From assembly GCA_029237695.1 (NCBI GenBank), contig CM055272.1:10528042-10592041 (forward strand): 64,000 nt of DNA. Reading direction: 5' to 3'. Every line of letters starts with the position of its first letter. The first letter of the stretch is position 1. A program made the position numbers and the translations under genes. Shown here one piece after another: positions 5,479-59,612 of this stretch. The notes beneath the pieces were generated by a model. That model saw nothing but the letters and a program-made list of their open reading frames with translations. It made no database searches and had not been told where the DNA came from. Source of the DNA: Conchocele bisecta (Eukaryota; Mollusca; Bivalvia; Lucinida; Thyasiridae).

Positions 5479-8400
5479 ACCGTCGGCGTCACCATCACGC
5501 CTTGGTTAAGGTTTTTAGTCAACCTTGGTTAAGGTTTTTAGTCAAGCTTGTACATGGAATACTATTGTGCATACAGACACCATACTTGGACGACCTTTTC
5601 TCATAGGGATGTACATCAATAACCCCTCATCTATATTTGACCTTGACCTACATTTCCTCTTGAATCACTTAGATAATTCCCCTTGGTTAAGGTTCTTTGT
5701 CGCGCCTGCTTTAGCAGTGGCGCGACTATAGTCGGCGCTTTTTCCGTCGTCGTCGTCGTCGTCCGCGTCGTCCGCGTCGTCCGGTTTTTTTGTAAGGCAA
5801 ATGCGTTAAAGTTATTGTTTTTTCACAATATCTCTTTAACCCCTTGCCAGACATTGATAATATTTCACATCAATGTTTGTCTAGGGATGATGCTTCATTA
5901 CGCACACCCCCACATCCAAATTTTGAAGGTCAAGGTCATTTATTTCCTTGTAATGTTCACCGGTTTTGTAACAGAAATGCGTTAAAGTTATTGTGTTTTC
6001 ACAATATCTCTTTAACCCCTTGCCAGACATTGATAATATTGCATATCAATGTTTGTCTAGGGATGATGCTTCATTACGCACACCCCCACATCCAAGGTCT
6101 GAAGGTCAAGGTCATTTATTTACTTGTAATGTTCACCGGTTTTGTAACAGAAATGCGTTAAAGTTATTGTTTTTTCACAATATCTCTTTAACCCCTTGCC
6201 AGACTTTGATAATATTTCACATCAATGTTTGTCTAGGAATGATGCTTCATTAAGCACACCCCCACATCCAAATTTTGAAGGTCAAGGTCATTTATTTACT
6301 TGTAATGTTCACCGGATTTGTAACAGAAATGCGTTAAAGTTATTGTTTTTTCACAATATCTCTTTAACCCCTTTCCAGACATTGATAATATTTCACATCA
6401 ATGTTTGTTTACGGATGATGCTTCATTATGCACACCCCCACATCCAAATTCTGAAGGTCAAGGTAATTTATTTACTTGTAATGTTCACAGTCAAATGCCT
6501 CGGTAGGCGCGACACCGCTTCCGTGGCGGAATTCTTGTTAGTCAAGCTTGTCGATGGAATACTCCTGGCCCTACACCAACCATACTTGGACAACTTCATC
6601 TCCTAGTGATGTACATCAACAACCCCTGACCTATATTTGACCTTGACCTACATTTAACCTTGAATTACTTAGTTAATTCCCCTTGGTTAAGGTTTTTAGT
6701 CAACCTTGGTTAAGGTTTTTAGTCAAACTTGTACATGGAATACTATTCTGCATACAGACACCATACTTGGACAACCTTTTTTCATAGGGATGTACATCAA
6801 TAACCCCTGATCTATATTTGACCTTGACCTACATTTCCTCTTGAATGACTTAGTTAAATCCCCTTGGTTAAGATTTTTAGTCAAGCTTGTAGATGGAATA
6901 CTCCTGGCCCTACACCAACAATACTTGGACAACTTCATCTCCTAGTGATGTACATCAACAACCCCTGACCTATATTTGACCTTGACCTACATTTAACCTT
7001 GAATTACTTAGTTAATTCCCCTTGGTTAAGGTTTTTAGTCAACCTTGGTTAAGGTTTTTAGTCAAGCTTGTAGATGGAATACTATTGTGCATACAGACAC
7101 CATACTTGGATAACTTTTTCTCATATGGATGTACATCAATAACCCCTGACCTATATTTTACCTTCACCTACATTTAACCTTGAATTACTTAGTTATTTCC
7201 CCTTGGTTAAGGTTTGTACTCAAACTTGGTTTAAGGTTTATAGTCAAGCTTGTATATGGAATACTCCTGTGCCTACAGCAACCATACTTGGACAACTTCA
7301 TCTCCTAGTGATGTACATCAACAACCCTTGACGTATATTTGACCTTGACCTACTTTTACCCTTGGATTACTTAGTTATTTCCCCTTGGTTAAGGTTTTTA
7401 GGAAAGCTTGTATATGGAATACTCCTGGGCCTACAGCAACCATACTTGGAACACTTCATCTCCTAGTGATGTACATCAATAACCCCTGACCTATATCTGA
7501 CATTGATCTACATTTAACCTTGAATTAGTTACTTAATTTCCCTTGGTTAATGTTTTTAGTCAACCTTGGTTAAGATTTTTATGCAGGCCGCGGCCACCTT
7601 GTTTGTCAAGCTATGTGTACATCGACAACCCTCGTAGTCGAGCTATGCTGTTCTCCTGTAGCTCTTGTTTTACCAGTGTACACTCAAGATCAGCCTGTGC
7701 ATCCGCCTGTTCGCCATGCCATCAATGAAACACCGGCCATACTTCTAACAAGCAATCTAGATCGTTATCAGGCTGCATGTGTATGCTATTTGATCAGGAT
7801 CTCCACTGGTCACAAATTTCATGAGCCCCATTTCTCCAGTCACAGCTACATATATTGAACTTTTCCAGAGTGCGAGATGATTTTTCATTCGACGAGAAAG
7901 TTGTGGAGCACTTCGGCTGTGAAGTACACAGCTTTGATCCAGCGTAAGTACGCATCTTTGATCCAGGCACATTTTTTACCCTGGCACAGCTTTGACCCTG
8001 GCACAGCTTTGATCCAGTGTAGGTACACAGCTTTGATTCAGCGTAAGTACACAGCTTTGATCCAGGCACAGCTTTGATCCAGCGTTAGTACACAGCTTTG
8101 ATCCAGGCACAGCTTTGATCCAGCGTAGGTACACAGCTTTGATCCAGCGTAAGTACACAGCTTTGATCCAGGCACAGCTTTGATCCAGCGTTAGTACACA
8201 GCTTTGATCCAGGCACAGCTTTGATCCAGCGTAGGTACACAGCTTTGATCCAGCGTAAGTACACAGTTTTGATACAGCGTAAGTACACAGCTTTGATCCA
8301 GGCACAGCTTTGATCCAGCGTTAGTACACAGCTTTGATCCAGGCACAGCTTTGATCCAGCGTAGGTACACAGCTTTGATCCAGCGTAAGTACACAGCTTT

Positions 8401-11400
8401 GATCCAGGCACAGCTTTGATCCAGCGTAGGTACACAGCTATGAACCAGGTACAAAATTTGATCCAGCGTAGTGCACAACTTTTATCCAGCGTAGTGCACA
8501 ACTTTGATCCAGCGTAGTGTTTAGCGTTGATCCAGCGTAAGTACACATTTTTGATCCAGGCACAGCTTTCATCCAGCGTATGTACACAGCTTTGATCCAG
8601 GCACAGCTTTGATCTAGTTACAGCTTTGATCTAGATACAGCTTTGGTCCAGCGTAAGTACAGAACAATACGTTGGGTGATGATATACATGTAGTTCTAAT
8701 ACAGTGGAACCTCTCTAAACCGGACACCAAGAAAATATGCGTGTTCTTGGTAACGCATCTCAGAAAATAATGCATGTTTATGATTTCAAAAGCCATAAGT
8801 ATGTCACATAATGGTCATATGCCTGATTTACAGTGGAACATATCTAAAGCGGACATCCTGTGAACCTCTCCCAGTATGTCCGGTATAGAGAAGTTTCACT
8901 CTATTGCATCATATTACAAAACATTGTCCGGTTACCGCAACGAGCGCGCTTGTCATACCCATGCGGCTCCGTGTTCGATCCTCAGTCGGGGAAATATATG
9001 AGATGGTACGGTGGTCGTCAGATCAGACAAGTGGGCTTCCTCCAGGTACTCCGGTTTCTTCCCACATTAATGACCGTCCTTACGCCTTCATCTGTGCCAA
9101 CATAAGCATTTTATAAGTGATCTGCGCATGTTTGTAATCGTTGTAAAAGAAATGAAGTTTATACTTTATATTACAAAACAATGGTTTGGGAGTGTTTTCC
9201 GTCACCTCTTTTACACACGACATCGCAATGTATAATGTATGTCCATTACTATGGCAATACACGATATTGTTGGAGTTTTAAAAGCATGTCATGTGATCAG
9301 TACAACTTCAATGTATGATGATGTGCGTATGAAATACAATTCATCTAACATGTTTATCTCCCGGATGAAAGTCGATACATCGATACCTAACCACCCTGGG
9401 TCATTCAGGTGACCTTGACCTATTTTTCTCGAAATATATAATATGTAGGTCACGTCCTTCAAAACTTGGACTTACTCCAAATTTCGTATATCTCCTGATA
9501 CTTTAGTCGAATGTTCGCCAGTTTATTCATCAGTAGCTTCCTTACATTGATACCTAATCACCCTGGGTCATTCGGATGACGTTGAACTATTTTTCTCGAA
9601 ATATAGGTATCTCAATCAAAATTGGATGTGCATCCAAATTTCGTACATCTCCTGATACGTTAGTTGGATGTTCCCCAAACATCATCAGTAGCTTCCGTAC
9701 ATTGCTACCTAACCAAACATGGTCATTTGTTTGATCTTATATTTGCATATACATGTACACACTGTAGTGGGTGAGATATTTGCTGGCGTACAGTACCATT
9801 GTGTATCCATGTCACAATCATGCACAAATAGCTTTAAACTCCTTGACTGATAGTCAAGTTTCTTATGAAATCAGTGAACGTGTTTTAATATATAAAACTA
9901 TGATATAAAATCAGCACTCGTGTAAGATCTGTATAATATTACCATGCTCTGTAAAACGACTTATCATTCAACACAAATGAGGAACATTTGTACACATTGT
10001 ATCCATTTAAATTAGATTGGTGTGAGCTATATGGGTGAGTATGGCTTTCGTGTTTCAGTAACGGTATGCAGGACCATCTGCACTCGCCGGGCGTCCATTT
10101 CCATTCCCTGGGACTCGGGGACACAGACGGCTCCATGAACGACTGGACAATGAAGACAGCCAATACAATCAGGTCCGACCTCCGCCATTCCAACGTGAGT
10201 ATAGCGTGAGCAATTCACGTATGTAACAGAATGTAATAATAAGGCCAGTGGAGCCTCTTGTGGTGCTATATTTCTTCCCGCTGCTTAACGTGATAACGTG
10301 ACAGCTTAGTCGTGGTAACTACATGTGAGACACCCCATGCGAGTTTGTACCTAAGAACATTAAAAATATTTAGGATATTTTCATTAAATCACGTCGAAAG
10401 AAAATATCACAGTTTCTGTAAATATATTTAATGACAAATCGCACATGTTCTTAGGTACAAAATCACATAGCGTGTATCATGTACACTTACTATTTGGCCA
10501 GGACGAGCTAAATTGGAGGAGTTAAATAAGACGAACTCTTGTCACAACTGTGGTACTATGCACTCGTGACAATTTTAGTACATCCTATATTATCCTGATC
10601 AGTTAGTAAGTCGGTGCGATACTTATCATTGTAAATTGTCAAGACGATATACTAATGGGTCAATGTGAGATTTGAATGTAATATCATATGTGGCCATAGA
10701 CTACTGTCTTAAATTGACGAGAGAAAAAACGTAAACAAGTGGATGTCACTGGTGGGCAGTACCTGTACATGTGTAAGGTGTGAATATGTCCACACGAGCG
10801 ACATATTCGCGTGACACTAAGGCGCTAATATGTCCGCGGGCATATTCGTTAGTGCGGACACATTCACACCTTTCAGCATGTACTAATATTTTGACGAGAT
10901 TTCTATCAGTTCGTATGTCGTATATATTTTTGAACTATGGATATGTGCAACCTGCAACAGAATACTTATTCTGATCCCTATTGCGGGGTACACGTCGTGT
11001 TGTTGCCGGATTAAGTGTCAGAGCTACTGATCATTGAATTACATTCACTGAAGGTTGTGCACGTCGCATGGTCCTGGCAAAATAAACATTAATTCACCCT
11101 TATCCCACGCATTGATTGGCATTATTATATACTTTATATCAGCCGTAAATTTCCACACTGATATCAGGGGCGATAACCGTGTTTCCTTAAAATGTTAACG
11201 GACATTACTATTTATTCTCTGCATTTGTGTTTTGATGTTCAATGATCATACTTTGTAATCTGTCGAAAATATTAATTTTTCAGGTGACGCATTTAATTAG
11301 TACATGTATAAATAATTAAAAAATGTCATGCCTCATTTACATATGAAAATAGCCTGATACCACCGCGAGTCACTATCAATAAAATAAATATTACTGAATG

Positions 11401-12205
11401 ATTATACGTGTATCTGTATAGCGGGCACTAGTAATTTTTAGAACTGGTGGAATAGTGACACAATTATACACTATTAATTCCCTACATAACAGTTTGTGCC
11501 TACTGAGTGGCATGTACCTTTAACAGTGACTTATAGGCGCATAGGGTCGGGTGTTTTCATCACTATATTTGTTTCGTTTGATATATTGTATGCACATGTC
11601 ACTATAATACATAATTTACTTACTTATACGAGTTTAATGTGAATTAAGCAGCTATCACATAGTGTGGATGGCAGAAATGTGACGACATACTTCGAACTAG
11701 AATCCGCAGATGTTTCACTACACTAATAACCCGAATTTTCTGGCTGTCACGCAGAACGACTTACAATGTAAGTCGCTGTAAGTCGCTGTAAGTGACAGCC
11801 AGAAAATGTAAGTCGCTCTGCGTGACAGACAGAAAATTTGGGTTATATAATGCGTGCGTTTTGTTTTATCACCAGTCGGAGGTGCAGCTGATGAAGATTG
11901 ACATCGAGGCAGGCGAGTGGACGGCCCTGCCCCAGATGCTGTCAACGGGCGCCCTCCAGGGCGTGAAACAGCTGATTATAGAGTTCCACACATTCGTTAA
12001 CCTTCCGCCCTGGATCGTGGATGGCCGCAACGTCAACGACTACAGACAGCATTTACAAGTGCTCCGGGCATTATACGACGAGGGGTTTAGGATTTTCTAT
12101 TTCAAACGGTTTCCCGCGAACTGTTGTATGTATGAAGACTTTCAGAACGCCGTCAGAACAGGTTGCTTGGAAACACATTTTATTCACGTTAACAATAGCA
12201 TATAG
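2356..12205 (+). CDS. METTL24: METTL24-like putative methyltransferase, 3' five exons (5' end outside window)
   Basis: Five exons join in compatible phases: 2356-2498, 4212-4340, 7869-7943, 10059-10194 and 11876-12205. All have AG acceptors and GT donors, and together encode about 270 C-terminal codons. The translation has the order expected of the METTL24 / Methyltransf_22 (FkbM-like) family: a Cys-containing 'VKCNKQIHFG..DGGYDVC' stretch, 'CVAYSFG', 'FGCEVHSFDP', 'SPGVHFHSLGLG', then the acidic 'MKIDIEAGEW' motif typical of SAM-dependent methyltransferases, and 'IIEFH'. The vertebrate family protein is about 370 residues, so roughly 100 N-terminal residues, probably including a signal or anchor, lie upstream of the window. 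The reading frame is intact and the conserved residues look preserved, so the gene appears functional. The family's substrate is not established. Intron 3 starts with a minisatellite derived from the exon end. Confidence 0.85.
2829..4043 (+). mobile_element. Cluster of Helitron/Helentron-like repeats with GGCGGGC minisatellites
   Basis: Two 5' heads (about 2829 and 3066) share an AGCCAGG..CCAGGCT hairpin, a T-rich loop and 'attggattggcgaaagcc', then run into (GGGCGGC)n tracts and 'acaatcaatgttaagttttcgtgtt'. The cluster ends near 4000-4043 with a CCTGGCT box and terminal TTTCTTGTT. The same 5' head occurs at about 49755. It lies wholly in the intron between the 2356 and 4212 exons. Confidence 0.55.
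3782..3958 (+). mobile_element. Short complete Helitron-like element (177 bp)
   Basis: The left end has a GTCGCACCCGC..GCGCGA hairpin and a (CCGT)n run. The right end has a GGCGCGAC box, the palindrome GGCCACGGCC and a terminal ATCTAGT, the canonical CTAG-type Helitron end. It is nested in the 2829-4043 cluster. Confidence 0.5.
4212..4340 (+). CDS. METTL24: METTL24-like exon: Cys-rich 'DGGYDVC' segment
   Basis: The acceptor is 'cggacag' and the donor 'gtaata'. It is 129 nt (1+126+2) and encodes 'YIESIQVKCNKQIHFGNIMD', then 'GGYDVCEDP', and ends 'PCVAYSFG'. The YSFG end with split Gly is shared with METTL24-type proteins just before the SAM-binding region. Confidence 0.88.
5425..5486. repeat. 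(CGGCGT)n microsatellite
   Basis: About ten hexamers of GGCGTC occur in a row, followed directly by the ~175-bp array. It may be the microsatellite head of a Helentron-like copy. Confidence 0.85.
5500..5699. repeat. ~175-bp tandem array, left part
   Basis: Units start with 'ccttggttaaggtttttagtcaa' and include 'gatgtacatcaata(a)cccc' and 'gaccttgacctacatt'. The array resumes at 6540 after the insertion at 5700-6539. Confidence 0.75.
5700..6539 (+). mobile_element. Helentron-like element with 176-bp x 4 core (copy B)
   Basis: The 5' hairpin TCGCGCC..GGCGCGA is followed by a (GTC)n run. Four tandem units of exactly 176 bp follow, with anchor 'atgcgttaaagtta' at 5801, 5977, 6153 and 6329. The right end has a second GGCGCGAC box, a CCGC..GCGG hairpin and TTCTTGTT. 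The element interrupts the ~175-bp array: the intact unit reads GGTTTTTAGTCAAG, whereas here GGTTCTTT and AGTCAAG flank it with no duplication. A tandem core inside a hairpin-ended element resembles the pearl/HINE elements described in oysters (inference). Confidence 0.65.
6540..7605. repeat. ~175-bp tandem array, right part
   Basis: At least six units are marked by 'ccttggttaag' near 6681, 6860, 7019, 7201, 7383 and 7548. Alternating types ('atactattctgcatacagac' and 'atactcctggccctacacc') suggest a two-unit higher-order repeat. It ends at a GGCCGCGGCC palindrome followed by ACCTTGTT. Confidence 0.75.
7869..7943 (+). CDS. METTL24: METTL24-like exon whose 3' end seeded a minisatellite
   Basis: This 75-nt exon (1+72+2) has acceptor 'ttttccag' and donor 'GTAAGT'. 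It encodes 'VRDDFSFDEKVVEHFGCEVH' followed by 'SFDP'. It supplies the segment expected between 'YSFG' and 'SPGVHFHSLGLG'. The last 16 nt, ACAGCTTTGATCCAGC, together with the donor GTAAGTAC, recur dozens of times immediately downstream. Confidence 0.88.
7944..8665 (+). repeat. Minisatellite built from exon 3' end plus splice donor
   Basis: About 35 units occur. The long unit (24 bp) is exonic ACAGCTTTGATCCAGC followed by intronic GTAAGTAC, or the variants GTAGGTAC and GTTAGTAC. The short unit (17 bp) is ACAGCTTTGATCCAGGC and lacks the donor. A higher-order unit of long-long-short-long-short (about 106 bp) repeats about three times. At least seven units keep a consensus-like GC|GTAAGT donor. 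Antisense translation gives a long low-complexity ORF that is not a gene. Confidence 0.92.
8702..8901. mobile_element. pogo/Tigger-like miniature element with TA flanks
   Basis: The left end is TA|CAGTGGAACCTCTCTAAACC. An internal second copy of the end starts at 8831. The right end reads 'tgtccggtatagagaagtttcac' before TA, the inverse of the left end with a few changes. TA duplication and CAGTGGAACCTC-type ends are typical of pogo/Tigger mariner elements. No transposase is present. Confidence 0.6.
8930..9090 (+). mobile_element. tRNA-related SINE-like fragment
   Basis: A Pol III B-box-like GTTCGATCCT (8973-8982) is followed by 'gtgggcttcctccaggtact' and 'ccggtttcttccca', a phrase recurrent in invertebrate SINEs. 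No clear A box or poly-A tail is visible. Confidence 0.4.
9370..9770. repeat. ~155-170-bp tandem array, three units
   Basis: Anchors 'acat(c/t)gatacctaa(c/t)caccctgggtcatt' lie near 9376, 9543 and, diverged, 9698. It lies in intron 3 of the METTL24-like gene. Confidence 0.65.
10059..10194 (+). CDS. METTL24: METTL24-like exon: 'SPGVHFHSLGLG' segment
   Basis: The acceptor is 'gtttcag' and the donor 'GTGAGT'. It is 136 nt (1+135), ends in phase 0, and encodes 'NGMQDHLHSPGVHFHSLGLG' then 'DTDGSMNDWTMKTANTIRSD'. A second possible acceptor lies 12 nt downstream (TATGCAG), which would remove four residues; the phase of the preceding exon supports the upstream one. Confidence 0.87.
10195..11725. other. 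METTL24-like intron 4, no gene seen
   Basis: There is no coding signal. It holds two palindromic miniature repeats, at 10321-10482 and about 10764-10888, listed separately or below. The remainder is AT-rich unique-looking intron. Confidence 0.6.
10321..10482. mobile_element. Palindromic miniature element (162 bp)
   Basis: A perfect 17-bp inverted repeat, TTTGTACCTAAGAACAT / ATGTTCTTAGGTACAAA, is extended outward imperfectly to ACATG..CATGT ends. A second, shorter inverted repeat lies at about 10764-10888 (AAGGTGTGAATATGTCC / GGACACATTCACACCTT). Both look like MITE remnants; target duplications are not clear. Confidence 0.5.
11726..11846. repeat. Foldback hairpin 30 bp upstream of the terminal exon
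   Basis: The left arm 'ataacccgaattttctggc' continues to 'gcgacttac' and is matched inversely by 'gtaagtcgctctgcgtgaca' to 'aaatttgggttat' (arms about 37 bp). The centre holds three GTAAGTCGC direct repeats, that is, donor-like GTAAGT motifs just before an acceptor. Confidence 0.7.
11876..12205 (+). CDS. METTL24: METTL24-like terminal exon with 'KIDIEAGEW' motif
   Basis: The acceptor is 'tatcaccag'. The exon runs 109 codons to TAG at 12203-12205. It encodes 'MKIDIEAGEW', 'LIIEFH' and 'LRALYDEGFRIFYFKRFPAN', and ends in a Cys-rich tail ('CCMYEDFQNAVRTGC'). Codon use is GC-rich compared with the AT-rich surroundings. The acidic IDIE motif is the family hallmark. Confidence 0.92.
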   Translation, partial: SEVQLMKIDIEAGEWTALPQMLSTGALQGVKQLIIEFHTFVNLPPWIVDGRNVNDYRQHLQVLRALYDEGFRIFYFKRFPANCCMYEDFQNAVRTGCLETHFIHVNNSI

Positions 12206-12249
12206 CATGAACAGTTTCACGTGTAATATGTATTGTAATCAGTTTCACC

Positions 12250-12255
12250 AATAAA
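12250..12255 (+). terminator. Polyadenylation signal AATAAA
   Basis: AATAAA lies 45 bp after the METTL24-like stop codon. This implies a very short 3' UTR ending near 12270-12280. Confidence 0.65.
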
Positions 12256-12659
12256 ATATTGCCATGGCTTGTGTGTCACGAAATTCCTTATGGACTGACA
12301 CAATGCTGATTGTGTCAATTGTGATCCATCGTCAGTCGAATGTCTGCACATATGGTTATAAAACGGTGTGAGCACATACTTCGATCCAATGCTCTATATC
12401 AGGACGTTTGATTGGTCGAGGCTGAGCTCGCATTATTCTGATGGTCCTCTATGATGCTGTGACAACCGACACGTGTGCCTTATGTTAAAGACACTGTGTC
12501 TCCGGTAACGTTTCAGATCTTCCATATCTTCCACGTATATATAGTTTACTTTATGGACTTCATATGATCTGTAACAAACCATTTCATTTGACCAGTTTCT
12601 TTGTTTTTTCGTCCGTTCGTCTATACGTACGGCTACCAAACTTGCACACATTAATCGGC

Positions 12660-13083
12660 TATCAAACGTGTACACAGTAATCGGCTACCAAACGTGTACA
12701 CAGTAATCGTCTACCGAACGTGTACCGTGACAGTAATCGGCTACCGAACGTGTACACAGTAATCGGCTGTCGAACGTGTAGACATTAATCGGCTACCGAA
12801 CATGTACACAGTAATCGGCTGCCGAACGTGTAGACAGTAATCGGCTACCGAACGTGTAGACAGTAATCGGCTACCGAACGTGTAGACAGTAATCGGCTAC
12901 CGAACGTGTAGACAGTAATCGTCTACCGAACGTGTACACAGTAATCGGCTACCGAACGTGTACACAGTAATCGGCTACCGAACGTGTAGACAGTAATCGG
13001 CTACCGAACGTGTAGACAGTTATCGGCTACCGAACGTGTAGACAATAATCGGCTACCGAACGTGTACACAGTAATCGGCTACT
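12660..13083. repeat. 26-bp minisatellite downstream of METTL24-like gene
   Basis: About 16 units of CGGCTACCGAACGTGT followed by A(C/G)ACAGTAAT. The main variant position is ACAC versus AGAC. There is no similarity to the exons, so unlike the arrays at 7944 and 57728 it is not exon-derived. Confidence 0.9.
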
Positions 13084-13264
13084 GCTCGACATCAGATATG
13101 GCATACAATGTTTGATCTTTATATAACATTGACATACTGTTTCCTCTTACATACTTAGCCATCCGGACCACTTTTGTACGTTTAACTCTTATCTGCGAAA
13201 ATAGTGAAATGGTATTGATTTTGTTAAAACTTAGCATTGCCTCTCAATGTACAATACTGTATAT

Positions 13265-13639
13265 TACGGAGCCCCGCAGTGGACGTAGAATTCTTTTTTT
13301 TCGTTCCCACGAAAAAACAATTCGTTCCCTCATTTAAACAATTCGTTCCCACGAATTAACAATTCGTTCCCACGATATAAAAATTCGTTCCCACGAATTA
13401 ACAATTCGTTCCCTCCCACTATATAAAAATTCGTTCCCACGATATAACAATTCGTTCCCACGAATTAACAATTCGTTCCGTCGATTTAACAATTCGTTTC
13501 CACGAAATAACAATTCGTTCCCACGGGAACGAATTGTTAATTCGAGGGAACGAATTTGTTAAATTGAGGGAACGAATTGTTGTTTCGTGGGAACGAATTA
13601 ATAAAAAAAAAAAATCCATGTCCCCTGCGGGGCTCCGTA
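13265..13639. mobile_element. Foldback element with internal inverted minisatellite (TACGGAGC ends)
   Basis: Terminal inverted repeats are TACGGAGCCCCGCAG and CTGCGGGGCTCCGTA. The interior is about 12 units of ACAATTCGTTCCCACGAATT in the left arm, then the same unit in inverse orientation, meeting at the palindromic centre 'attcgttcccacgggaacga' near 13510-13530. No transposase ORF is present and no clean target duplication was found. The ends and architecture match the element at 36736-38475. Confidence 0.7.
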
Positions 13640-15006: not shown

Positions 15007-15149
15007 TTGTTTTTTGCTACATTCTTGTAACCAATGTTTTTTTTATCATATTAGAGCACATAGAACAAAACGGGGGTTGGTTCCATTATGTTCAACAATT
15101 TCAAAATGGCCGCCCTGAATGCTATATTCAATAATGTTTCGGCCCATCC

Positions 15150-31398: not shown

Positions 31399-31399
31399 A

Positions 31400-40382: not shown

Positions 40383-43300
40383 GTAAAAATCTATTTTAAT
40401 GCAACAACTACAGATCTTACACACACGCTATTATGTTTATCATATAAAAATAAGTTGATATAGTATCATAGGTGCAACTCAACACGCTCTATTCATGTTG
40501 ACATGTGGAAATAATTGGAGGCTGTAACTTGTCATTAGTTTTCGCGACTGGTTAGCCTACGCTTGCATATTGCATTAAAGTTCTTCTACAGTAGGGGGAC
40601 CCGTGCTCGTGGTAATTATGCCCCACCAGGATAGTGGAGGGGGCATTTAGTGTTACCCTTGTCTGTCCTGTCCGTGTGTCACCAAACTTCTCGTAACTCT
40701 TATTTTCTTTTAAATCTGAAACTTGGTATGTACAATAGTGTCGGCTAATTCTGCGCACCTAAGGCTTTCCAAACAAATGTATATGTTATTAACATCCCCA
40801 TATTCAGTCAAAATTTCAGGAATATCAACGCAATTCAAAGACGTCTGCAGGTAAATTCAATGTCATAATGTTCTGACGTCAGTAAGTGACGTAAATTGTG
40901 TGATGTATGGCATCACATGCATGTTTGCAACGTCACATTTGTTTCTGCTAATGCTGCACATTTTATAGTTTGTCCAATTCCTGTTGCAGGGATAGTGCGA
41001 CCAGGTGTAAGGACATGCTATGCCAATACTCGGCCCAACCTGATGCTGACCAAAGACACAAAGGTCATCTGCCAGGGCTTGACTGGCAAGCAGGTAACGG
41101 CGGGGGTTGAAAAAATCCTTTTTTTTCCACTCGCCCAGCTGGGCAAGTACAAAAAAAAAGTAAAAATAAAATGCTATTTCCAGTATTTGTAATGTTGCAT
41201 CTTATTTAAAAAAAAAAGAAGCTTTTACATATATTTGATCATTACCAAAACGTATGAGACATATTCACTATTATTGTTATTTATATTTTAAGTATTAAAT
41301 GAACATAAACAAACAAATAAATATTATTTATCGTGAGATAAACTTCATCAAGTTTTTTCTTCAACAACGTTTCTTAGCAGCGAATTTGCTCAGAGGCTTG
41401 CATGCTTCTTATTTTCTATAAGCGTTGAGTGACATAGATTTTGTTTAATTTATAGTGGCAATGTTTGCATGCGCTGCGCGCTGCCTTAATTACTAAATTC
41501 AATGGTTTCGGACCCGGTGCCGACCGTTTCGTCCCAAGCCGTTATGTTCGGCGTCTGAAATGTGCGTTAAAGGCCCTGAACGGCTCAGTATTACAATCTC
41601 CCGATTTTTTTCAAACACAAAAACATGTTTGGCAACTGATTTAGTACACAAAACTAACATATACTGCCTAATAGATACATCTAAAGTCTTGAGATTTACA
41701 TCTTAATCGCAATGTGAAGACAACAAAAACTTGTTTTGTGTACCACTCAGTGGAAAATGTCAATATTGACAAATTAATTCCCGTAACCCAACGGCTTCGG
41801 CTCGGAAGCGAGTCGATAAACTCCGGCTATCGGAATTCATCGGCCGCGAATCAAGGAGTTGACCCGAGCTTCTATCGGAAAATCGATCGGACTTTGAACA
41901 CGCACCTGCTGTTTGTTTATCAACAAATATTGATATTTTCATCGACTACAAACTCATTTTTGTACCAAAATGAATGCAAACAGTTTCAAAGTGTGTGTAA
42001 ATAGAAACCTGTTGGATTTATATGTGGGAAAACCCAATAGGAGGCCAAATTCGGCAACTTGAGCCGTATTGGGGCTTTAACCTAACTGTATACGAGACGA
42101 TATATGTGGCCGCATATACACTAGTCTATACTCGCAGTAATATATTATTTGTTAGCCCGGCCGCGTACAGCCGACAAATAATCCGTGAATTAAACGTGCC
42201 CGATATGGACCGTGTTCAAAATCGCTAGCGATTCTACCCGTAACCGTGTACATAGACACCGCTTGAATCTTACTTCCCGCAAATTGACGTAAACTGTAAA
42301 CCAGGGTTCAAGCTAGGCCAAAAATTTAGGGAGAAGTGACTTCTCCCTCCTGGCAAAATAGGGAGAATTGAGGCAAAATTAGGGAGAAGTGATAAAAATC
42401 ATAATTTCACTTGAAACAATCGATGCGATCCAATTTTACAGCCTATTTGGTGGGATTAGCGCATTTATGACATGCACTCGCCCCTAGGGTATGAAATTCA
42501 TAGTAAAAAAAAAAAATAAAAAAATAAAAGAAAAAATTCCAGGGCGACTTGACTTCCCCCTACAAGAAAAATAAGGCGACTTGGCCAGAAAAAAAGCGAC
42601 CACTTCGCCCATGTCGCTCTCAAACATGAACCCTGCTGTAAACAACAAATGGTCGCTGAATTAATACCATTTGTTGGCCGTTATCGATGGAATTAATTGG
42701 CAATTTCTTCAGAAAAAAAAATCCTGACCAAATCTTTCACTCGCCAAGCTGGGCGAGTGCCTGTAAAAAGTACTCGACCGCCACAAAAAGCACTCGCCAT
42801 GGCGAGCCGGGCGAGTGAAATTTCAACCCCTGAACGGGATAACTGGCTGATAAAAAGATCCATAGGACATCTGTGCTCAGTGTAGATCTTGGTCATCAAT
42901 GTACTTGAAGATTTAAAGACTGTTGTTGTTGAATATAAGCAACGGTAAACTGAGCGAATGGCAACCTGTGTAGGTGCAGTCTGACCTGGGGATAAGCTGA
43001 GTGAATGGCGACCAGTGTAGGTGCAGTCTGTCTGGGGATAAGCTGAGTGCATGGCGACCAGTGTAGGTGTAGTCTGACCTGCTGATAAGCCGAGTGAATG
43101 GCAACCAGTGTAGGTGCAATTTGTCTGAGGATAAGCTGAGTGAATGGCGACCAGTGTAGATGCAGTCTGTCTGGGATAAGCTGAGTGAATGGCGACCAGT
43201 GTGGGTGCAGTCTGTCTGGGGATAGCTGAGTGAATGGCGACCAGTGTAGGTGCAGTCTGACCTGGGGAGAAGCTGAGTGAATGGCGACCAGTGTAGGTGC

Positions 43301-52300: not shown

Positions 52301-55300
52301 AGTGGGGCTCCAGACCAGGCATGCGCCTCTGCGCAGTCTGATCAGGAATTACATGTTTCGCGAATCAACTGAAAAACCATGCTTCTACTTCTAAGGAAAT
52401 TTCAGACGCATATCAGGATTAAAGTGTTTGCTAGCTGATCGGGATTTACACTAGTCCATAATCAAGTGGCGGGAAACATATAATACATATGCACAGGATA
52501 ACAACATACATGAATAACATTGAATAGTAATTACCGGTTTCGGAGAAGGATATCTGATTTTTGATGTTTATACGTTGTTGTGACTGACGAAATGGAACTT
52601 ATGGTATGTTTTACCAATCGATTTCATAAGCTATTAATACGCTCCTGCATATATACAATGAGAATTCAACAAACACATAATTATACCACCACGAAACACC
52701 GCGTACCGACAAAGCAGCGGGAGTTCTTTACCAAGGATCAACAATTACGCTATTTAATGCAATAAATCTTTATTAAGGTACGGATTAAACACCTGCAAGC
52801 CTTCAGGCTGTCAAAACAATACAGTGTTATTAATTGTCGATATTAGGGACAAGCAAACTTTGACGCGATACTGTATTAATCGTCGATAACGGACAATACA
52901 AACTTTGACACGTGCTGGGATCAATTGCCGTACATGTATGTGCGACGGTGAGAAATAAGTTAACCAAACAATACCTTGAAATAAGTTTTCCATTCGAATA
53001 CCAAACTGATATTCGAATATTCGGTCAATAAACGAATATTCGAATATTCGTTGCGATCCCTAATTAAAACTTGAATGCCTCTACCATGTTATAACTACAA
53101 CATGTCCTAATAAGAGACAATATACAGTACACATTTACATGATACTGGTACCACTGTTTGCTTTTTGCAGCTCAGCTAAGTAAATTTTCAACTTTATTAC
53201 AGTATTTCTACTACTCAATTTGAAAATCAATGTGTATTCTGCTCAAATAAGTGTAAAATATGTCAATACGCACCTTATCTGGAGCTCTGATCCCAATCAA
53301 TTCATTTGATACCACATTGTAGTGTACTGTTGAAGCTCCATTCATTTGTTTTGGGCACATGGATGCTTTGTGGCCTACAGGTTAGGACTAGGACACTGGA
53401 CTGTAATACCATATGTTGTGAGTTCAATCCCCGCCCTAGGCGTGAAAAATACTTTCATATAATTTCCACCCGTCTGGTCCTTCGGATGAGACTTGAAGCC
53501 AAGGTCCCATCTCTATATGACCTTACATGTAGCTGTTGCTAGTACATAAAACCCTTTCACTTTTTTGTTCAGGGCACGTTCCACAGCCAGCAGGCGATCG
53601 AGTATGGTACGAAGATGGTAGGCGGCGTATCACCGGGGAAGGGGGGACAGCGGCACTTGGGTGTACCCGTCTTCAACTCGGTCAAGGAGGTAATCAGTTT
53701 TAGCTCGCCTGCACGAAGAAATGAGTGCTTATGCCATAGTGAGCATAGTCGTACATGCCTGCCATCATGCCAGGCCAAATCCACGGCCCTCTGACCCCCC
53801 GCCTAACCCAAGGTCAAGCTCACAGTACCCAAACACACCCTTGTAGACAGAATTATTATTATCCCTCGCCGATAGACAAGAGGGGATATAGCGTTGGTCT
53901 ATGCACGTACGTTAGTGACACCTTTCATTTTTGTCTCGCCTGCTGTAGCAGAAGGAGCGACTATAGTCGCCGCTTTTTCCTTCGTCGTCCACGTCTGTTA
54001 TCGTCCGCGTCAAAAGTTTGTACAAGTTTCTTCATCATGACATAACTTTAATATTACTTGATGGATTGGTTCGATATTTGGACACTTGATACATGTGAGT
54101 ATTTGGAACACACTGATGCCGGCAAGGCTCAACACTAAGGCACGTCCAACCGACCGAGTCTAGTAAAAATGTGGTCCGTTCGTGTCAATTTTCCCGGAAT
54201 ACCATTGTCGGTAGCCCGACTGGTCGTGTTCCAATTTGACAAAGGTCACTGCCAAAAATGTCAGAAATAAAATAGTGTTAGTTCGCCGTTTATTTTTCTA
54301 GTAATAACCAACACAAAAAAATATCGCTGATTGACAGTTCGAAAATAGTTTATTTACAACTCCAGGCGGACTTGTCTGTCTAGGTTTCGGGTATGATAAT
54401 TGAGTAGGCCTCTGTATTTCATACCCAAACCAAAACGTACCCATTTTAAACAGTGGAATCAATGCTACCATCGAATATGATAATTTAGTGAGTGAATTTG
54501 AAATTCTGTGTGCTCTGATGTAGGTCTCATAGTTTCTTCTGTTTGTTTTTTGCCGGACAGTTTAAATCTATTATCAACAATGCAAACCTCAATACCGCAT
54601 GGCATTATGATATTCTGATGCAATTTTGAACGGATCCCGATAAATGAACCAAACTAAATCATAACAATCAAGTCCGGAATAAAGCTAATTTACATAAGAA
54701 GTAGAACGATCTGCGATTGGTTGATGGTGCTTCATTCACCAAATAGCATTTTTTTATTGGAAGCTGTCAGAAATATAAGCAAACGGTGAGTACCGTACGT
54801 ATTGATCATACAAATATCTTGAAAAGATCATGTAATCGACCTGTGACTCAGCCAATCACACACAGTGGATCAAATGTGTCAAACAACTTGTCCAAAAATC
54901 GTTGTATTGGCTGAGGCATGCTGCTGAGCACGTGATTTTACTAACATCCACATCGCTAATAAATAGTGTGCCCTGATATGAGCATAGTGAAAATTAGTTC
55001 AACTGATATGGAACATTCTAAGTCACTTAAAGTTCTTGTTTTATTGAGCTGGGAGGCAGAGTCTGCCATTTAATGAATTATTATTCATTGATCTGACACC
55101 TTGGATAAGATGATTTAATCGTCTCCGATTGAAAAAAAACACAAACTGTTCAAACTGGAAGTGCCTGCTGCCTCCGATTTTTGGCTTGTTTTCAGTGATG
55201 ATGTGAATATTAGTTGCATTCCAGACACTTTCCGTGATTAATTTGTGTAGTTATAAGTTTATTATTATTCTTTCAGAAGTAAACAACTGGTTTCTTGAAC

Positions 55301-57727
55301 GTTAAACCTTCCAACGATACAACTATTAAATTATATTGTTGCATAACCAGTAGTCGACATAACCAGTAGTTGGACACACTCTTTACGTTCAAACACATAC
55401 CTGTATCATCACGATCACTGATGTTAGCCGATTTGAAAATGACTTAGCACTGTGTTTGGTGAAACTTTGATGGTTAGTTCAATTAATTATATTGTCTCTT
55501 GTCATTTATAATGGCCTGCCCTATACCTTTTTCAAATGTCCCCAACTTTGTGTATGAGGTGGGTCAACTGGCCCCACTTTAAAATTCCTCATGGACATAT
55601 GCTTTATATGCAAGTTACGCTTCACTAGGTCAGGGCTAGTACAAATTAGGTCAGGGCTAGTAGTTTCTAAAAATACTAGCCCGACTGGTCTAGTGGAAAA
55701 AAAAGTTAGCGTTGAGCCCTGCCATTAACATGATAATTTTTTATACAACCGTTTTAAAATCAACGGTACGTATTACGTTTTACCACATGGCGGTCGGCGG
55801 ACAGAAAAACTGCATAGTTTGTGTACAATACTCCTCTGAAACCGTCCAGTCAATTGATCTGAAACTATACACATGTCTTCTACACATATTGAAGATGTAC
55901 ACCGTGCTGTTTTTATGCCGAATTTTTATTATTTTTTAACAAAAATATCACCTTTTTAACATAGCCATTTTTTCTACATTTTGTATACAATTCTATAAAG
56001 GGTACAGAGTTTGTGCACACAATTTCTCTGAAACTGTTCAGCCAATCGATCTGAAACTATACACACGTCTTCTACACATATTGAAGATGTGCACCTTAGT
56101 ATTTTTATGCACAAAAAATATTTTTTAACAATAATATCACCTTTTTAACTTTGTCATTTTTTCTACATTTTTGTATGCAATTCTACATATGGTAGAGTTT
56201 GGGTACACAACTCCTCTGAAACAGTTCAGTCAATCGATCTGAAACTATACACACGTCTTCTACACATATTGAAGATGTGCACCGAACACATATTCCGAAA
56301 ATCTTTTTTTTAACAAAAATATCACCTTTTTAAGTTAGCCATTTTTTCTACATTTTTGTATCCAATTCTATATAATTTCTACTTTACACATCTCTACCTA
56401 AATTAGTATACCTGTTTATCACAACAAGAGGAAGAAACAATGCTATAGATTTTCAAATTCTCATTAATGTTTCATGCCTTGGTGACAGCTTCATATTTCT
56501 GCATCTTCGCTGTCTGGCCCATCTTCGACGGGCGTATTTTGTGACTTACGGTACTCTTGTTTAATATTAGATACTACTATCATGATTATGTTCAATTAGT
56601 TTACAATGCACAAGATGTATTGAAAAGTGAAAATAAAACATTTAATCATCAAAATATAGACTTTTTAACTTACCAATTTTTGTTGTTGTGCCGCTTTTTC
56701 CGTCATAATTGTCGTCCAAAATGTCAAAAAGTTTGTACAAGCTTCATCATCATGATATAACTTTGATATTACTTGATGGATTGCTTCAATATGTGGAGAC
56801 TTGATACATGTGAGCATTTGGTACACACTCTTGTCCCCATTAACATGACCTTGACCTTTGTACATTCACATTTTTGCGGAAACACAGCCATTTTTTTGCG
56901 TCAAAAGTTTATGTTCAATTAGTATACAATATACATGATATATTGAAAAGTGAAAATAAAACATTTAATCATCAAAATATAGATTTTTTGTCTTTCCTGC
57001 TTTAGCAGAAGGCGCAACTATAGTCGCTGCTTTTCGTTTTCACTGTCGTCCACGTCGCCTGAAATGTAAAAAAAATTGTACAAGCACACTCATGCCGCCA
57101 TTATCATGACATTGACCTTTTTTTACCTTCACATTTTTGCGGAAGCACTTAATAGCCATTTTTTTGCGTCAAAAAAAATTGTACACATTTCTTCATCATG
57201 ATATAACTTTGATATTACTTGACTGATTGCTTCAATATTTGGAGACTTGATACATGTGAGCATGTTTTTGTCATTAACATGACTTTGACCTTTGTACATT
57301 CACATTTTTTGCGTCAAAAAAGTTTGTACAAGTTTTTGCATCATCATATAACTATAATATTACTTGATGGATTGCTTCAATATTTGGACACTTGATACAG
57401 TAAGCACTTGGAACACACTCGTCGCTTTTTCTGTCATTGTCCGCATCGTCGTCCAAAATGCATGGTATAACTTTCAATCTTCATATAGAAATTTTATAGT
57501 TATAGGCCTTCAGCGACAACCTTAACTTCAGGTTTAACGATACAAGCTGCTCAATTTGAGTATGAGATTTGAATAAATGTAAAAGCTGCCATTGTTTTCA
57601 TGCATACAGGCGCGGGAAGCCACAGACTGTGATGCGTCGGTGATCTACGTGCCACCCAAGTTTGCTGCAGCGGCCATTGAAGAAGCCATTGATGCTGAAG
57701 TTCCCCTAGTTGTAGTCATCACAGAAG
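40349..57727 (+). CDS. SUCLG1: Succinyl-CoA ligase [ADP/GDP-forming] subunit alpha, mitochondrial (first four exons)
   Basis: Exons 40349-40382, 40990-41093, 53573-53689 and 57610-57727 join in phase and encode the first 124 residues. The order is an Arg-rich presequence without acidic residues ('[20 protein letters not shown]'), '[13 protein letters not shown]', '[20 protein letters not shown]', '[19 protein letters not shown]', '[20 protein letters not shown]' and 'VPLVVVITE'. These are near-invariant parts of the CoA-binding domain of the alpha subunit. The subunit pairs with SUCLA2 or SUCLG2 in the TCA cycle and carries the phosphohistidine, which lies in exons beyond the window. The family is about 330-350 residues, so about 220 are missing at the window end. 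The frame is intact. The introns hold most of the mobile DNA on the right side of the window. Confidence 0.95.
40990..41093 (+). CDS. SUCLG1: SUCLG1 exon 2
   Basis: The acceptor is 'cctgttgcag' and the donor CAG|GTAACGG. It encodes 34 codons ending '[10 protein letters not shown]'. The exon boundary falls inside the CoA-binding G-x-T-G-K-Q-G motif. The donor's seventh intron base is the last base before a transposon (41101). Confidence 0.95.
41101..42832. mobile_element. hAT-like non-autonomous element inserted 7 bp into SUCLG1 intron 2
   Basis: The ends are CGGGGGTTGAAA (left) and TTTCAACCCCTG (right), i.e. CAGGGGTTGAAA-type inverted repeats. Subterminal palindromes of CACTCGCCC and GGGCGAGTG occur at both ends. 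A 5-bp duplication AACGG flanks it (41096-41100, 42833-42837). No transposase was found. It carries a nested element at 42302-42635. hAT affiliation is inferred from the end sequence; 5-bp duplication is shorter than the usual 8. Confidence 0.7.
42302..42635. mobile_element. hAT MITE with 8-bp target duplication
   Basis: The ends CAGGGTTCAAGC / CATGAACCCTG are flanked by perfect 8-bp repeats CTGTAAAC (42294-42301 and 42636-42643). The interior has 'gggagaagtgacttctccct' palindromes. It is nested within the element at 41101-42832. Confidence 0.85.
42930..43439. repeat. 46-bp minisatellite, left block
   Basis: About eleven units contain GAGTGAATGGCGACCAGTGT followed by AGGTGCAGTCTGTCTGGGG. It is continuous in ancestry with 50638-51225, from which it is separated by the transposon at 43440-50637. 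Antisense open frames are artefacts. Confidence 0.9.
45635..46189 (+). pseudogene. Non-LTR retrotransposon (CR1/Jockey-type) reverse-transcriptase C-terminus
   Basis: A 185-codon open frame runs from '[20 protein letters not shown]' through '[16 protein letters not shown]', '[16 protein letters not shown]' and '[16 protein letters not shown]', to '[20 protein letters not shown]' and a stop. These phrases are typical of the C-terminal region of Jockey/CR1-like ORF2 proteins. The catalytic RT and endonuclease are absent, so it is a 5'-truncated copy, but its frame is still open. It is nested within the transposon at 44152-47578. Confidence 0.88.
46463..46747. mobile_element. MITE with CAGGCCCG ends and G/C homopolymer hairpin
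   Basis: The ends CAGGCCCGCAGCC / GGCTACGGGCCTG are inverted. The interior has 'gggggtccggcggcatgccc' and a G18-type run facing a C run near 46685-46730. The core is shared with the repeats at about 16700 and 36000. Confidence 0.6.
47690..47790 (+). mobile_element. SINE 3'-end fragment
   Basis: 'gttgataggccgttaaacac' followed by 'caataaacaaacaaacaa' is a SINE tail form common in bivalve genomes (recollection). A C15 run precedes it at about 47670. Confidence 0.45.
48102..49342. mobile_element. hAT element (non-autonomous) with 8-bp target duplication
   Basis: The ends TAGGGTTGGCAATTTCCCGG and CCGGCCAACCCTG are inverted repeats rich in GGGAAATA / TATTTCCC. They are flanked by perfect 8-bp repeats ATGAAGAC (48094-48101 and 49343-49350). 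The 1.24-kb AT-rich interior has no transposase ORF. Confidence 0.88.
49740..50101 (+). mobile_element. Helitron-like element with canonical CTAGT end
   Basis: It starts with AGCCAGG..CCAGGCT hairpin and 'attggattggcgaaagcc', then 'atgttaagttttcgtgtt' twice. It ends with hairpin GTAAGCCTCGCTTAC, then TGACCAATCTAGT. The 5' head matches 2829 and 3066, while the 3' end matches 14976-15006, so it may be a chimera of two families. Confidence 0.55.
50638..51225. repeat. 46-bp minisatellite, right block
   Basis: About thirteen units of the same repeat as 42930-43439, resuming after the transposon at CAGTGT. Variants 'gataagcagagtgaatg' and 'gataagctgagtgaatg' alternate. The long antisense open frames here are artefacts. 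Confidence 0.9.
51339..51663 (+). mobile_element. Two head-to-tail Helentron-like copies
   Basis: Copy 1 (51339-51512) and copy 2 (51513-51663) share a 5' hairpin TGCCAC..GTGGCA around 'gggtttcgaagaaa', a (GTCT/GTCC)n tract, 'cacacttttcggttaaccac' and a 3' end with GGTGGCAT box and TTTCTTGTT. The TTGTT of copy 1 is joined directly to the hairpin of copy 2. Confidence 0.7.
51864..53062. mobile_element. hAT element (non-autonomous) with 8-bp target duplication
   Basis: The ends TAGGGATGGCATCGAAT and the inverse of 'cgaatattcgttgcgatccc' are followed by several ATTCGAATATTCG words. Perfect 8-bp repeats ATTAAAAC flank it (51856-51863 and 53063-53070). The length is 1199 bp with no transposase. 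Confidence 0.92.
53365..53568 (+). mobile_element. tRNA-derived SINE just upstream of SUCLG1 exon 3
   Basis: An A-box-like 'tggcctacaggttaggact' and B-box GAGTTCAATCC (about 53419-53429) give a tRNA-like head. They are followed by the conserved SINE core 'ggtccttcggatgagac' and 'gccaaggtccc'. It ends within about 20 bp of the SUCLG1 acceptor polypyrimidine tract. Confidence 0.7.
53573..53689 (+). CDS. SUCLG1: SUCLG1 exon 3
   Basis: The acceptor is 'ttgttcag' and the donor GAG|GTAATC. It is 39 codons in phase 0 at both ends, encoding '[20 protein letters not shown]' and '[19 protein letters not shown]'. A Helentron-type head (TTTTAGCTCGCCTGCACGAA) starts 8 bp into the following intron. Confidence 0.97.
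53698..54122 (+). mobile_element. Helentron-like heads and fragments
   Basis: 'ttttagctcgcctgcacgaa' at 53698 and 'gtctcgcctgctgtagcaga' at about 53937, the latter followed by 'ggagcgactatagtcgccgc', are two 5' hairpin heads of the family seen at 342 and 5700. A related head ('cctgctttagcagaaggcgc') lies at about 56998. The sequence resumes after the transposon at 54123-55721. Confidence 0.5.
54123..55721. mobile_element. CAGGGCTCAA-ended DNA transposon, 1.6-kb uninterrupted copy
   Basis: The left end CAAGGCTCAACACTAAGGCA and right end 'aagttagcgttgagccctg' are inverted. Subterminal 'agcccgactggtc' motifs occur at both ends. It is collinear, inverted, with the outer parts of 43440-50637. No coding capacity is seen. 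The target duplication is not clear; related sequence at about 57090 ('catgccgccattatcatgac') gives the presumed empty site. Confidence 0.75.
55722..56400. repeat. ~189-bp tandem array, three units
   Basis: Anchors 'ctgaaac(c/t)gt(c/t)cag(t/c)caat' and 'cttctacacatattgaagat' recur near 55838, 56028 and 56216. The array is AT-rich. Further diverged repeats with 'ttgatattacttgatggatt' follow at 56540-57440, probably tandem-core remnants of Helentron-like copies. Confidence 0.7.
57610..57727 (+). CDS. SUCLG1: SUCLG1 exon 4, whose 3' end seeded a minisatellite
   Basis: The acceptor is 'gcatacag' and the donor GAAG|GTAGGC. It is 39 codons plus one base, encoding '[20 protein letters not shown]' to 'VPLVVVITE' with a split Gly. 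The last 16 exonic bases, GTAGTCATCACAGAAG, recur throughout the following 1.9 kb. Confidence 0.97.
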
Positions 57728-59612
57728 GTAGGCCGGTGTAGCCATCACAGAAGGTAGGCTGGTGTAGTCATCACAGAAGGTAGGCTGGTGTAGTTATCAC
57801 AGAAGGTAGGCTGGTGTAGTCATCACAGAAGGTAAGCTGGTGTAGTCATCACAGAAGGTATGCTGGTGTAGTCATCACATAAGGTATGCTGGTGTAGTCA
57901 TCACAGAAGGTAGGCTGGTGTAGTCATCACAGAAGGTAAGCTAGTGTAGTCATCACTGAAGGGGTGTAGTCATCACAGAAGGTAGGCCGGTGTAGTCATC
58001 ACAGTATGTAGGCTGGTGTAGTAATCACAGTAGGTAGGCTAGTATAGTCATCAAAGAAGGTAGGCTGGTGTATCAATTACAGAAGGTAGGCTGGTGTAGC
58101 CATCACAGATGGTAGGCTGGTGTAGCCATCACATATGGTAGGCTGGTGTAGTCATCACAGAAGGTAGGCTGGTGTAGCTATCACAGAAGGTAGGCAGGTG
58201 TAGTCATCACAGAAGGTAGGCCGGTGTAGTCATCACAGTAGGTAGGCTGGTGTAGTCATCACAGAAGGTAGGCCGGTGTGTAGTCATCACAGAAGGTAGG
58301 CTGGTGTAGTCATCACAGATGGTAGGCTGGTGTAGTCATCACAGAAGGTAGGCCGGTGTAGCTATCACAAGGTAGGGAGGTGTAGTCATCACAGAAGGTA
58401 GGCCGGTGTAGTCATCACAGAAGGTAGGCTGGTGTAGTCATCACAGTAGGTAGGCTGGTGTAGTCATCACAGATGATAGGCTGGTGTAGCCATCACAGAA
58501 GGTAGGCTGGTGTAGCCATCACAGAAGGTAGGCTGGTGTAGCTATCACAGAAGGTAGGCAGGTGTAGTCATCACAGAAGGTAGGCCGGTGTAGTCATCAC
58601 AGTAGGTAGGCTGGTGTAGTCATCACAGAAGGTAGGCCGGTGTAGTCATCACAGAAGGTAGGCTGGTGTAGTCATCACAGATGGTAGGCTGGTGTAGTCA
58701 TCACAGAAGGTAGGCCGGTGTAGCTATCACAAGGTAGGAAGGTGTAGTCATCACAGAAGGTAGGCCGGTGTAGTCATCACAGAAGGTAGGCTGGTGTAGT
58801 CATCACAGTAGGTAGGCTGTTGTAGTCATCACAGAAGGTAGGCTGGTGTAGCCATCATAGAAGGTAGGCCGGTGTAGTCATCACAGATGATAGGCTGGTG
58901 TAGTCATCACAGAAGGTAGGCTGGTGTAGTCATCACAGAAGTGGTGTTGTCATCACAGAAGGTAGGCCGGTGCAGTCATCATAGATGGTAGGCTGGTGTA
59001 GCCACCACATATGGTAGGCCGGTGTAGTCATCACAGAAGGTAGGCTGGTGTAGTTATCACAGAAGGTAGGCTTGTGTAGTCATCACAGAAGGTAGGCTTG
59101 TGTAGTCATCACATAAGGTAGGCCGGTGTAGTCACAGATGGTAGGCTGGTGTAGTCATGACAGATAGATGGCCCGTAGCATCACGGAAGGTATGTGGAGT
59201 CGGCCATCACGAGGTAGGCTGGTGTAAGCCATCACTATGGTGATGGTGTAGCCTTCACAGAAGGTAGGCTGGTGTAGCCATCACATAGGTTAGGCTGGTG
59301 TAGCCTACAGAGGTGGCCCACCATACAGAAGGTAGGCTGTGTAGCCATCACAGAAGGTAGGCCGGTAGCATCTGGTGTACCGTCAGAAGGTAGGCTGGTG
59401 TAGCCATCACATAAGGTAGGCTGGTGTAGCCATCACATATGGTAGGCTGGTGTAGCCATCACAGAAGGTAGGCCGGTGTAGCCATCACAGAAGGTATGCT
59501 GGTGTAGCCATCACATATGGTAGGCTGGTGTAGCCATCACAGAAGGTAGGCTGGTGTAGTCATCAAAAACAGTAGGCTGGTGTAGCCATCACAGATGGTA
59601 GGTTGGTGTAGT
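57728..59612 (+). repeat. 26-bp minisatellite built from SUCLG1 exon 4 end plus splice donor
   Basis: About 70 units of GTAGTCATCACAGAAG (exonic) followed by GTAGGCTGGT (intronic) lie directly against the exon. Most units keep the AAG|GTAGGC donor context. Variants include GTAGCCATC, CAGATGG and GGCCGG. Degeneration increases near 59110-59400. A further block lies at 62927-63079 beyond an insertion. Confidence 0.95.

What the first reader, a model, noticed from the sequence alone, without database searches (positions are those of the whole stretch)
7928..59612. Recurrent mechanism: donor-spanning tandem amplification in two unrelated genes
Two of the seven GT donors visible in the window have independently seeded arrays with nearly identical geometry (16 exonic + 8-10 intronic bases). 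Chance seems unlikely. It may reflect replication slippage or R-loop-linked duplication centred on 5' splice sites, or selection for intron expansion. Tandem duplication of AGGT-containing segments is a known proposed route for making new introns; here it continues into large arrays.
Basis: partly seen in the sequence, partly recalled or inferred. Interest (0 to 1): 0.9.

Follow-up and report, generated by a model that had tools for sequence, protein, structure and literature searches.

The report
Tandem repeats born at exon edges
In this bivalve genome, short stretches spanning the junction between an exon and an intron have been copied over and over into long repeat arrays, at both ends of introns; similar structures were already described in lancelet genes, so this looks like a known kind of event in a new animal group.

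Summary
Two arrays in the window begin inside real coding exons and repeat the exon end plus the 5' splice site: METTL24-like (24/17-bp units, 33 copies) and SUCLG1 (26-bp unit, about 74 copies). They are 2 of the 7 donors I could place in the window. Past the window SUCLG1 has another donor-spanning array and one abutting a donor, filling 98% and 97% of their introns. The donor-centred interpretation is not supported: among 87 dynein exons from elsewhere in the genome, boundary-spanning arrays sit at 2 of 87 donors and 3 of 87 acceptors, with 48-106-bp units and no fixed geometry. These match 'mirages', boundary-spanning minisatellites described in amphioxus genes. Most likely mechanism: ordinary local tandem duplication, in three donor arrays apparently between 6-8-bp direct repeats, then expansion into the intron, tolerated while the splice site next to the constrained exon is used. 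An excess over uniform seeding (5 of 9 arrays near dynein exons span a boundary, 19% expected, p=0.016, post hoc) is only a hint; in the window's own region the unreported donors show no significant excess (1 of 18, p=0.25). The planned genome-wide motif scan did not complete.

The parts
7869..7943 (+). METTL24-like exon whose last ~22 bases are copy 1 of array 1 (CEVHSFDPA, donor GC|GTAAGT)
   Evidence: Homologue P0001 aligns through the junction to the next exon at 10059
7922..8652 (+). Array 1: 33 copies of CACAGCTTTGATCCAG, mostly 24-bp units with the donor and 17-bp units lacking it
   Evidence: fills 33% of its intron
57610..57727 (+). SUCLG1 exon whose last 17 bases are copy 1 of array 2 (VVVITEG, donor AAG|GTAGGC)
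   Evidence: phmmer to 2fp4_A E 2.2e-12; Pfam CoA_binding E 2.3e-10
57711..59614 (+). Array 2: 26-bp unit TGTAGTCATCACAGAAG|GTAGGCTGG, about 74 copies; fills 21% of its intron
   Evidence: the 34 listed genome matches to the unit all lie in this array or in the 62927 block (which skips very common words)
62927..63067 (+). Small block of 5.4 copies of the array-2 unit family, 3.3 kb downstream in the same intron
2400..2498 (+). METTL24-like exon, donor without array (5' end not resolved)
4212..4340 (+). METTL24-like exon, no array at either boundary
10059..10194 (+). METTL24-like exon, no array at either boundary
11876..12205 (+). METTL24-like last exon
41008..41093 (+). SUCLG1 exon, donor without array (5' end not resolved)
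53573..53689 (+). SUCLG1 exon, no array at either boundary

Best explanation
These are minisatellites that began as a local tandem duplication of a short segment straddling an exon-intron boundary, then grew into the intron by slippage or unequal exchange. Shown: copy 1 is the end of a coding exon; the exon bases equal the consensus of array-2 copies; donor arrays begin in the exon and run into the intron; the same occurs at other donors, and in mirror image at acceptors, of other genes. Inferred: the founding duplication was templated by short direct repeats, one in the exon and one in the intron (AAGTACA 7 bp, TGTAGTCA 8 bp, ACTGAA 6 bp in three donor arrays). Also inferred: arrays persist because the splice site next to the constrained exon keeps being used while internal copies are ignored, so the array behaves as nearly neutral intron filler. 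No donor-specific process is needed.
For: Exon identity and precise junctions. Exonic bases of array-2 unit 1 equal the consensus at all 17 positions. Copies nearer the exon are more like it in arrays 1 and 2 (Spearman -0.36 p=0.038; -0.40 p=0.00045). Outside the window, SUCLG1 80324 (40-bp unit, about 27 exonic + 13 intronic) and an array starting at donor 75622 fill 98% and 97% of their introns. Dynein sample: donor-spanning arrays in L041 (65 bp x5.1) and L052 (48 bp x4.5), acceptor-spanning in L030 (106 bp x5.4), L036 (80 bp x3.8) and L068 (86 bp x4.2). Reading on past the first donor meets an in-frame stop within 0-20 codons in all 5 donor-spanning arrays, so use of the first donor should be under selection. 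Minisatellites are dense here generally: 44 merged arrays in 264 kb.
Against: The terminal direct repeat is clean in only 3 of 5 donor-spanning arrays and 0 of 3 acceptor-spanning arrays, where the terminal partial copies are long or cut by the stretch end (read by eye). The identity gradient is absent in the array at 80324 (0.15, p=0.4) and not significant in the short arrays L041 and L052. Boundary-spanning arrays were 5 of 9 near dynein exons against 19% expected under uniform seeding (p=0.016, thresholds chosen after seeing the data), which may hint at a real preference that a neutral account would not predict. No RNA evidence that the first donor is used.
Confidence: 0.75

Rival explanations
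1. A 5'-splice-site-centred process (R-loop, transcription-coupled or U1-linked duplication) seeds the arrays at donors.
For: In the 264-kb region 3 of 20 donors and 0 of 21 acceptors have at least 3 recurrences, plus one donor-abutting array.
Against: Two of those three were the reported cases. In the dynein sample donors 2 of 87, acceptors 3 of 87; both samples without the reported cases, 3 of 105 and 3 of 108, Fisher p=1.
Confidence: 0.07
2. Pure chance: minisatellites are seeded uniformly and some happen to fall across boundaries; no preference at all.
For: Very high array density; 1.56% of random positions are array edges and 1 of 18 unreported donors is within chance (p=0.25).
Against: 5 of 9 arrays near dynein exons span a boundary against 19% expected (p=0.016, post hoc); three SUCLG1 donors carry or abut arrays.
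Confidence: 0.4
3. Intron birth by AGGT duplication (Rogers model): the arrays are young introns made of duplicated exon sequence.
For: Units carry exon sequence and a donor GT; two introns are 97-98% array.
Against: In the three window-region spanning cases the acceptor is outside the array (arrays end about 8652, 59614, 81870; acceptors 10059, 66908, 81904). Age of the intron positions was not tested.
Confidence: 0.05
4. The arrays are kept by selection for a function, such as buffering splice-site choice, regulating splicing or lengthening introns.
For: Many copies keep donor-like sequence; arrays are large.
Against: Array 1 contains many units with the donor deleted (17-bp spacing); internal donors would give stops. 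No sequence test for selection was made.
Confidence: 0.08
5. Assembly artefact of collapsed or expanded repeats.
For: Copy number of such arrays is hard to assemble.
Against: Copies are diverged and ordered with higher-order patterns, stretches on five further chromosomes show it, and lancelet precedents are published.
Confidence: 0.03

Closest known systems
'Mirages' in amphioxus: minisatellite-like tandem duplications of exon-intron boundaries in Adh3, globin, TnC and PGBD5 genes (PMC3087553 and PMC3902484, passages read; the original Adh3 paper, Nucl Acids Res 2002 30:2871, is not held and is known only through these)
   Same: Tandem units spanning an exon-intron boundary; 5' and 3' boundaries both affected; units of about 10-160 bp there, 24-106 bp here; many but not all copies carry the splice signal
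   Different: Different phylum (bivalve by protein similarity); arrays here reach 33-74 copies and an abutting one about 160, and fill up to 98% of an intron, against 3-6 units in globin BflGb6 and up to 7 in PGBD5; splicing or instability was examined there for some genes, not here
[quoted passage not shown] discussed in PMC4974935, passages)
   Same: Tandem duplication of a segment holding a splice signal; multiple duplication of a 24-bp exonic AGGT segment is reported there for fission yeast
   Different: Here the introns have ordinary acceptors outside the array and the duplication spans an existing boundary
Variable internal tandem repeats at human exon-intron boundaries in segmental duplications (PMC2812944, passages)
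   Same: Minisatellite-size units (mean 30 bp, 4 copies) at exon-intron boundaries
   Different: Studied there only in recently duplicated primate genes; smaller arrays

Membership tests
Mirages (boundary-spanning minisatellites) | Tandem array whose unit spans a real exon-intron boundary | tested here: met
Mirages (boundary-spanning minisatellites) | Occurs at 5' and at 3' boundaries | tested here: met
   2 of 87 donors, 3 of 87 acceptors in the dynein sample
Mirages (boundary-spanning minisatellites) | Some but not all copies keep the splice signal | tested here: met
   24-bp units with and 17-bp units without the donor in array 1
Mirages (boundary-spanning minisatellites) | Normal splicing is not disturbed | not testable with these tools
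   No RNA data; only in-frame stops after the first donor shown
Mirages (boundary-spanning minisatellites) | Length polymorphism and somatic instability | not testable with these tools
   One assembly only
Intron gain by AGGT duplication | Both new splice sites derive from the duplicated copies | tested here: not met
   Acceptors lie outside the arrays in the 3 window-region spanning cases
Intron gain by AGGT duplication | Intron position is new in the lineage | not tested
   No genomic sequence of relatives at hand
Introner-like dispersed elements | The same sequence in many unrelated introns | tested here: inconclusive
   The 34 listed genome matches to the array-2 unit all lie in one locus, but that search skips very common words; array 1 not searched. 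Introners are named in PMC4974935 (passages); their defining feature is recalled
5'-splice-site-specific amplification | Excess at donors over acceptors | tested here: not met
   2 of 87 vs 3 of 87, Fisher p=1

The most novel reading that the evidence does not exclude
In this bivalve lineage a few percent of all splice boundaries, at both ends of introns, have seeded minisatellites at several times the rate expected from uniform seeding, and their expansion is a main route of intron growth, leaving introns made almost wholly of degenerate copies of their own splice site.
Probability: 0.3. Interest if true: 0.65.

Novelty: new member of a known kind. Interest (0 to 1): 0.48.

Why it matters
Nine searches of an open-access library showed 'mirages' by that name only in lancelet papers, boundary repeats also in duplicated human genes, and no bivalve case in the lists that I saw; older or closed papers were not searched. 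In a small sample the rate here is 5 of 174 boundaries. If that rate holds, one genome contains thousands of natural tests of how the spliceosome chooses among near-identical tandem splice sites, and a concrete route for intron lengthening.

Tried and rejected
Donor-specific seeding: rejected on the dynein sample. A fixed 16+8-10 geometry: rejected; other arrays have other shares. The simple recurrence test (exon end found at least 3 times downstream) is misleading in this region: 302 of 1500 random positions pass it because of the many large arrays, so I used array edges instead. A genome-wide scan for triple tandem AGGTAAGT against permuted motifs was planned but did not complete. A codon-usage exon finder served to find the third gene, SLC49A3, whose 8 resolved donors have no arrays; it scored 2 of 13 known exons below zero when they were left out of training, so it misses exons.

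Dropped before counts: SLC49A3's first donor and the 5'-most exons of METTL24 and SUCLG1 (not resolved); 11 of 101 dynein matches not fetched; 3 of the 90 fetched matches, which are tandem copies of one exon; arrays with period under 20 or fewer than 2.9 copies, including a CCAA-rich block beside an acceptor in L030, two-copy duplications such as those in L056 and L084, and small repeats flagged near or over exons in L032, L051, L072, L080 and L085. In the dynein sample exon ends were taken from family-match ends; only the five spanning cases, and L056 and L084, were read base by base. The donor-abutting array at 75622 was judged by eye and does not pass the recurrence test (0 hits). Two acceptors (METTL24 11875, SLC49A3 128756) were set one base off. 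In one search the exonic share of L041 was entered as 58; it is 61, which moves three columns between its two identity figures. One search printed its results and then stopped on a missing module.

Full report
What was checked. The window lies at C8:10528042-10592041 of a 1.89-Gb assembly of 1196 contigs. The animal is a bivalve by protein similarity: the best hit of a neighbouring SLC49A3 gene is Mactra antiquata at 54% identity, followed by Ruditapes, Ostrea and Mya. Its name is not given to me.

Array 1. A METTL24-like exon (7869-7943) ends ..AAGTACACAGCTTTGATCCAGC|GTAAGT. With the exon's own there are thirty-three copies of CACAGCTTTGATCCAG. Spacing is mostly 24 bp when the copy keeps the donor tail and 17 bp when the tail is lost, with 106-bp higher-order repeats. 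Homologue P0001 runs through the exon junction without a break, so the exon end is ancestral and the copies are derived.

Array 2. The SUCLG1 exon (57610-57727) ends TGTAGTCATCACAGAAG|GTAGGC. The 26-bp unit (17 exonic, 9 intronic) is repeated about 74 times to 59614. At all 17 exonic positions the exon base is the array consensus. Over copies 2 onward, identity to the exon falls with distance in array 1 (Spearman -0.36, p=0.038) and array 2 (-0.40, p=0.00045), but not in SUCLG1's array at 80324 (0.15, p=0.4), and not significantly in the short arrays L041 and L052. A DNA search of the whole genome with this unit listed 34 matches, all in this locus, including the small block at 62927-63067; that search skips very common words, so wider dispersal is not excluded.

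The same genes outside the window. I fetched 200 kb of flanking sequence and followed SUCLG1 to its last exon. Its donor at 80324 carries a 40-bp array (about 27 exonic + 13 intronic; L010:6307-7861 by TRF) filling 98% of that intron. Its donor at 75622 is abutted by a 25-bp array of about 160 copies (L010:1631-5588) filling 97%. A third gene, SLC49A3 on the minus strand, has 8 resolved donors and no such array. Totals for the three genes: at least 3 recurrences at 3 of 20 donors and 0 of 21 acceptors.

Chance in this region. The region is full of large arrays, so mere recurrence is common: 302 of 1500 random positions. Being the edge of an array is rarer: 140 of 9000 (1.56%). Three of 20 donors is then p=0.0035, but two of the three are the reported cases. 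Without them it is 1 of 18, p=0.25. The local sample alone therefore does not prove enrichment.

A second sample. A search of the genome with the dynein AAA_6 family gave 101 exon matches. I fetched 60 of 68 merged stretches, 90 of 101 matches, with 320 bp each side, and ran TRF on all 60. Three matches are extra tandem copies of one exon start, leaving 87 exons. Donor-spanning arrays: L041 (65 bp, 5.1 copies, 61+4, exon ..LTLTQ|GTAAAC) and L052 (48 bp, 4.5 copies, 27+21..EKIIQ|GTATGG). Acceptor-spanning: L030 (106 bp, 5.4 copies, about 80 exonic), L036 (80 bp, 3.8, about 43 or more exonic) and L068 (86 bp, 4.2, about 29 exonic). I read these five junctions directly; the other exon ends rest on family-match ends. 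So 2 of 87 donors and 3 of 87 acceptors, Fisher p=1. With period at least 20 and at least 2.9 copies, four further arrays are purely intronic (L031, L070, L076, L086). Under uniform seeding that avoids exon interiors, 19.1% of arrays would span a boundary; 5 of 9 do (p=0.016). The thresholds were set after seeing the table, so this is a hint only.

How it probably works. In three donor arrays the sequence just after the last copy repeats the exon sequence at which the unit begins: AAGTACA (array 1), TGTAGTCA (array 2), ACTGAA (L041), read by eye. This is expected if the first duplication joined two short direct repeats, one in the exon and one in the intron, one period apart. It is not clean in SUCLG1's array at 80324 nor in L052, and none of the three acceptor arrays shows it. 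Growth then goes into the intron, because the exon is constrained. In all five donor-spanning arrays, reading past the first donor hits an in-frame stop within 0-20 codons, so the first donor should normally be used. That is inference; no RNA was examined.

What it is. Papers on amphioxus describe the same structures as 'mirages' in Adh3, globin, TnC and PGBD5 genes, at both 5' and 3' boundaries, with units of about 10-160 bp; they report no disturbance of mRNA for Adh, TnC and globins (PMC3087553, PMC3902484, passages). The bivalve cases meet the three structural features that I could test; undisturbed splicing and length instability could not be tested. Intron birth by AGGT duplication does not fit: in the three window-region cases the acceptor is outside the array. 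What this adds is the phylum, the size of the arrays, and a rough rate: 5 of 174 boundaries.

Noticed in passing
62927-63067: A 5.4-copy block of the array-2 unit family with its own variant (GTCGTGACAGATGG) 3.3 kb downstream of array 2 in the same intron, as if part of the array had been copied away.
   Followed up: partly
42946-43439 and 50638-51223: Two arrays with nearly the same 46-bp unit, about 7 kb apart in the same SUCLG1 intron, so minisatellite units may also move within an intron.
   Followed up: no
L014-L022, about 5 to 65 kb upstream of the window: Several giant minisatellites (up to about 9 kb; 42- and 43-bp units of about 170-200 copies) upstream of METTL24.
   Followed up: no
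L030:1853-2423: Acceptor-spanning array in a dynein heavy-chain gene: 106-bp units holding about 80 exonic bases and the 3' splice site, first visible as tandem extra family matches.
   Followed up: yes
L022, about -89637 to -86562 in window coordinates: A cluster of long open frames with coding-like codon use, perhaps a mobile element, not identified.
   Followed up: no
13300-13599: Array of TTCGTTCCCACGAAATAACAA units whose last part reads as the reverse complement, an inverted minisatellite.
   Followed up: no
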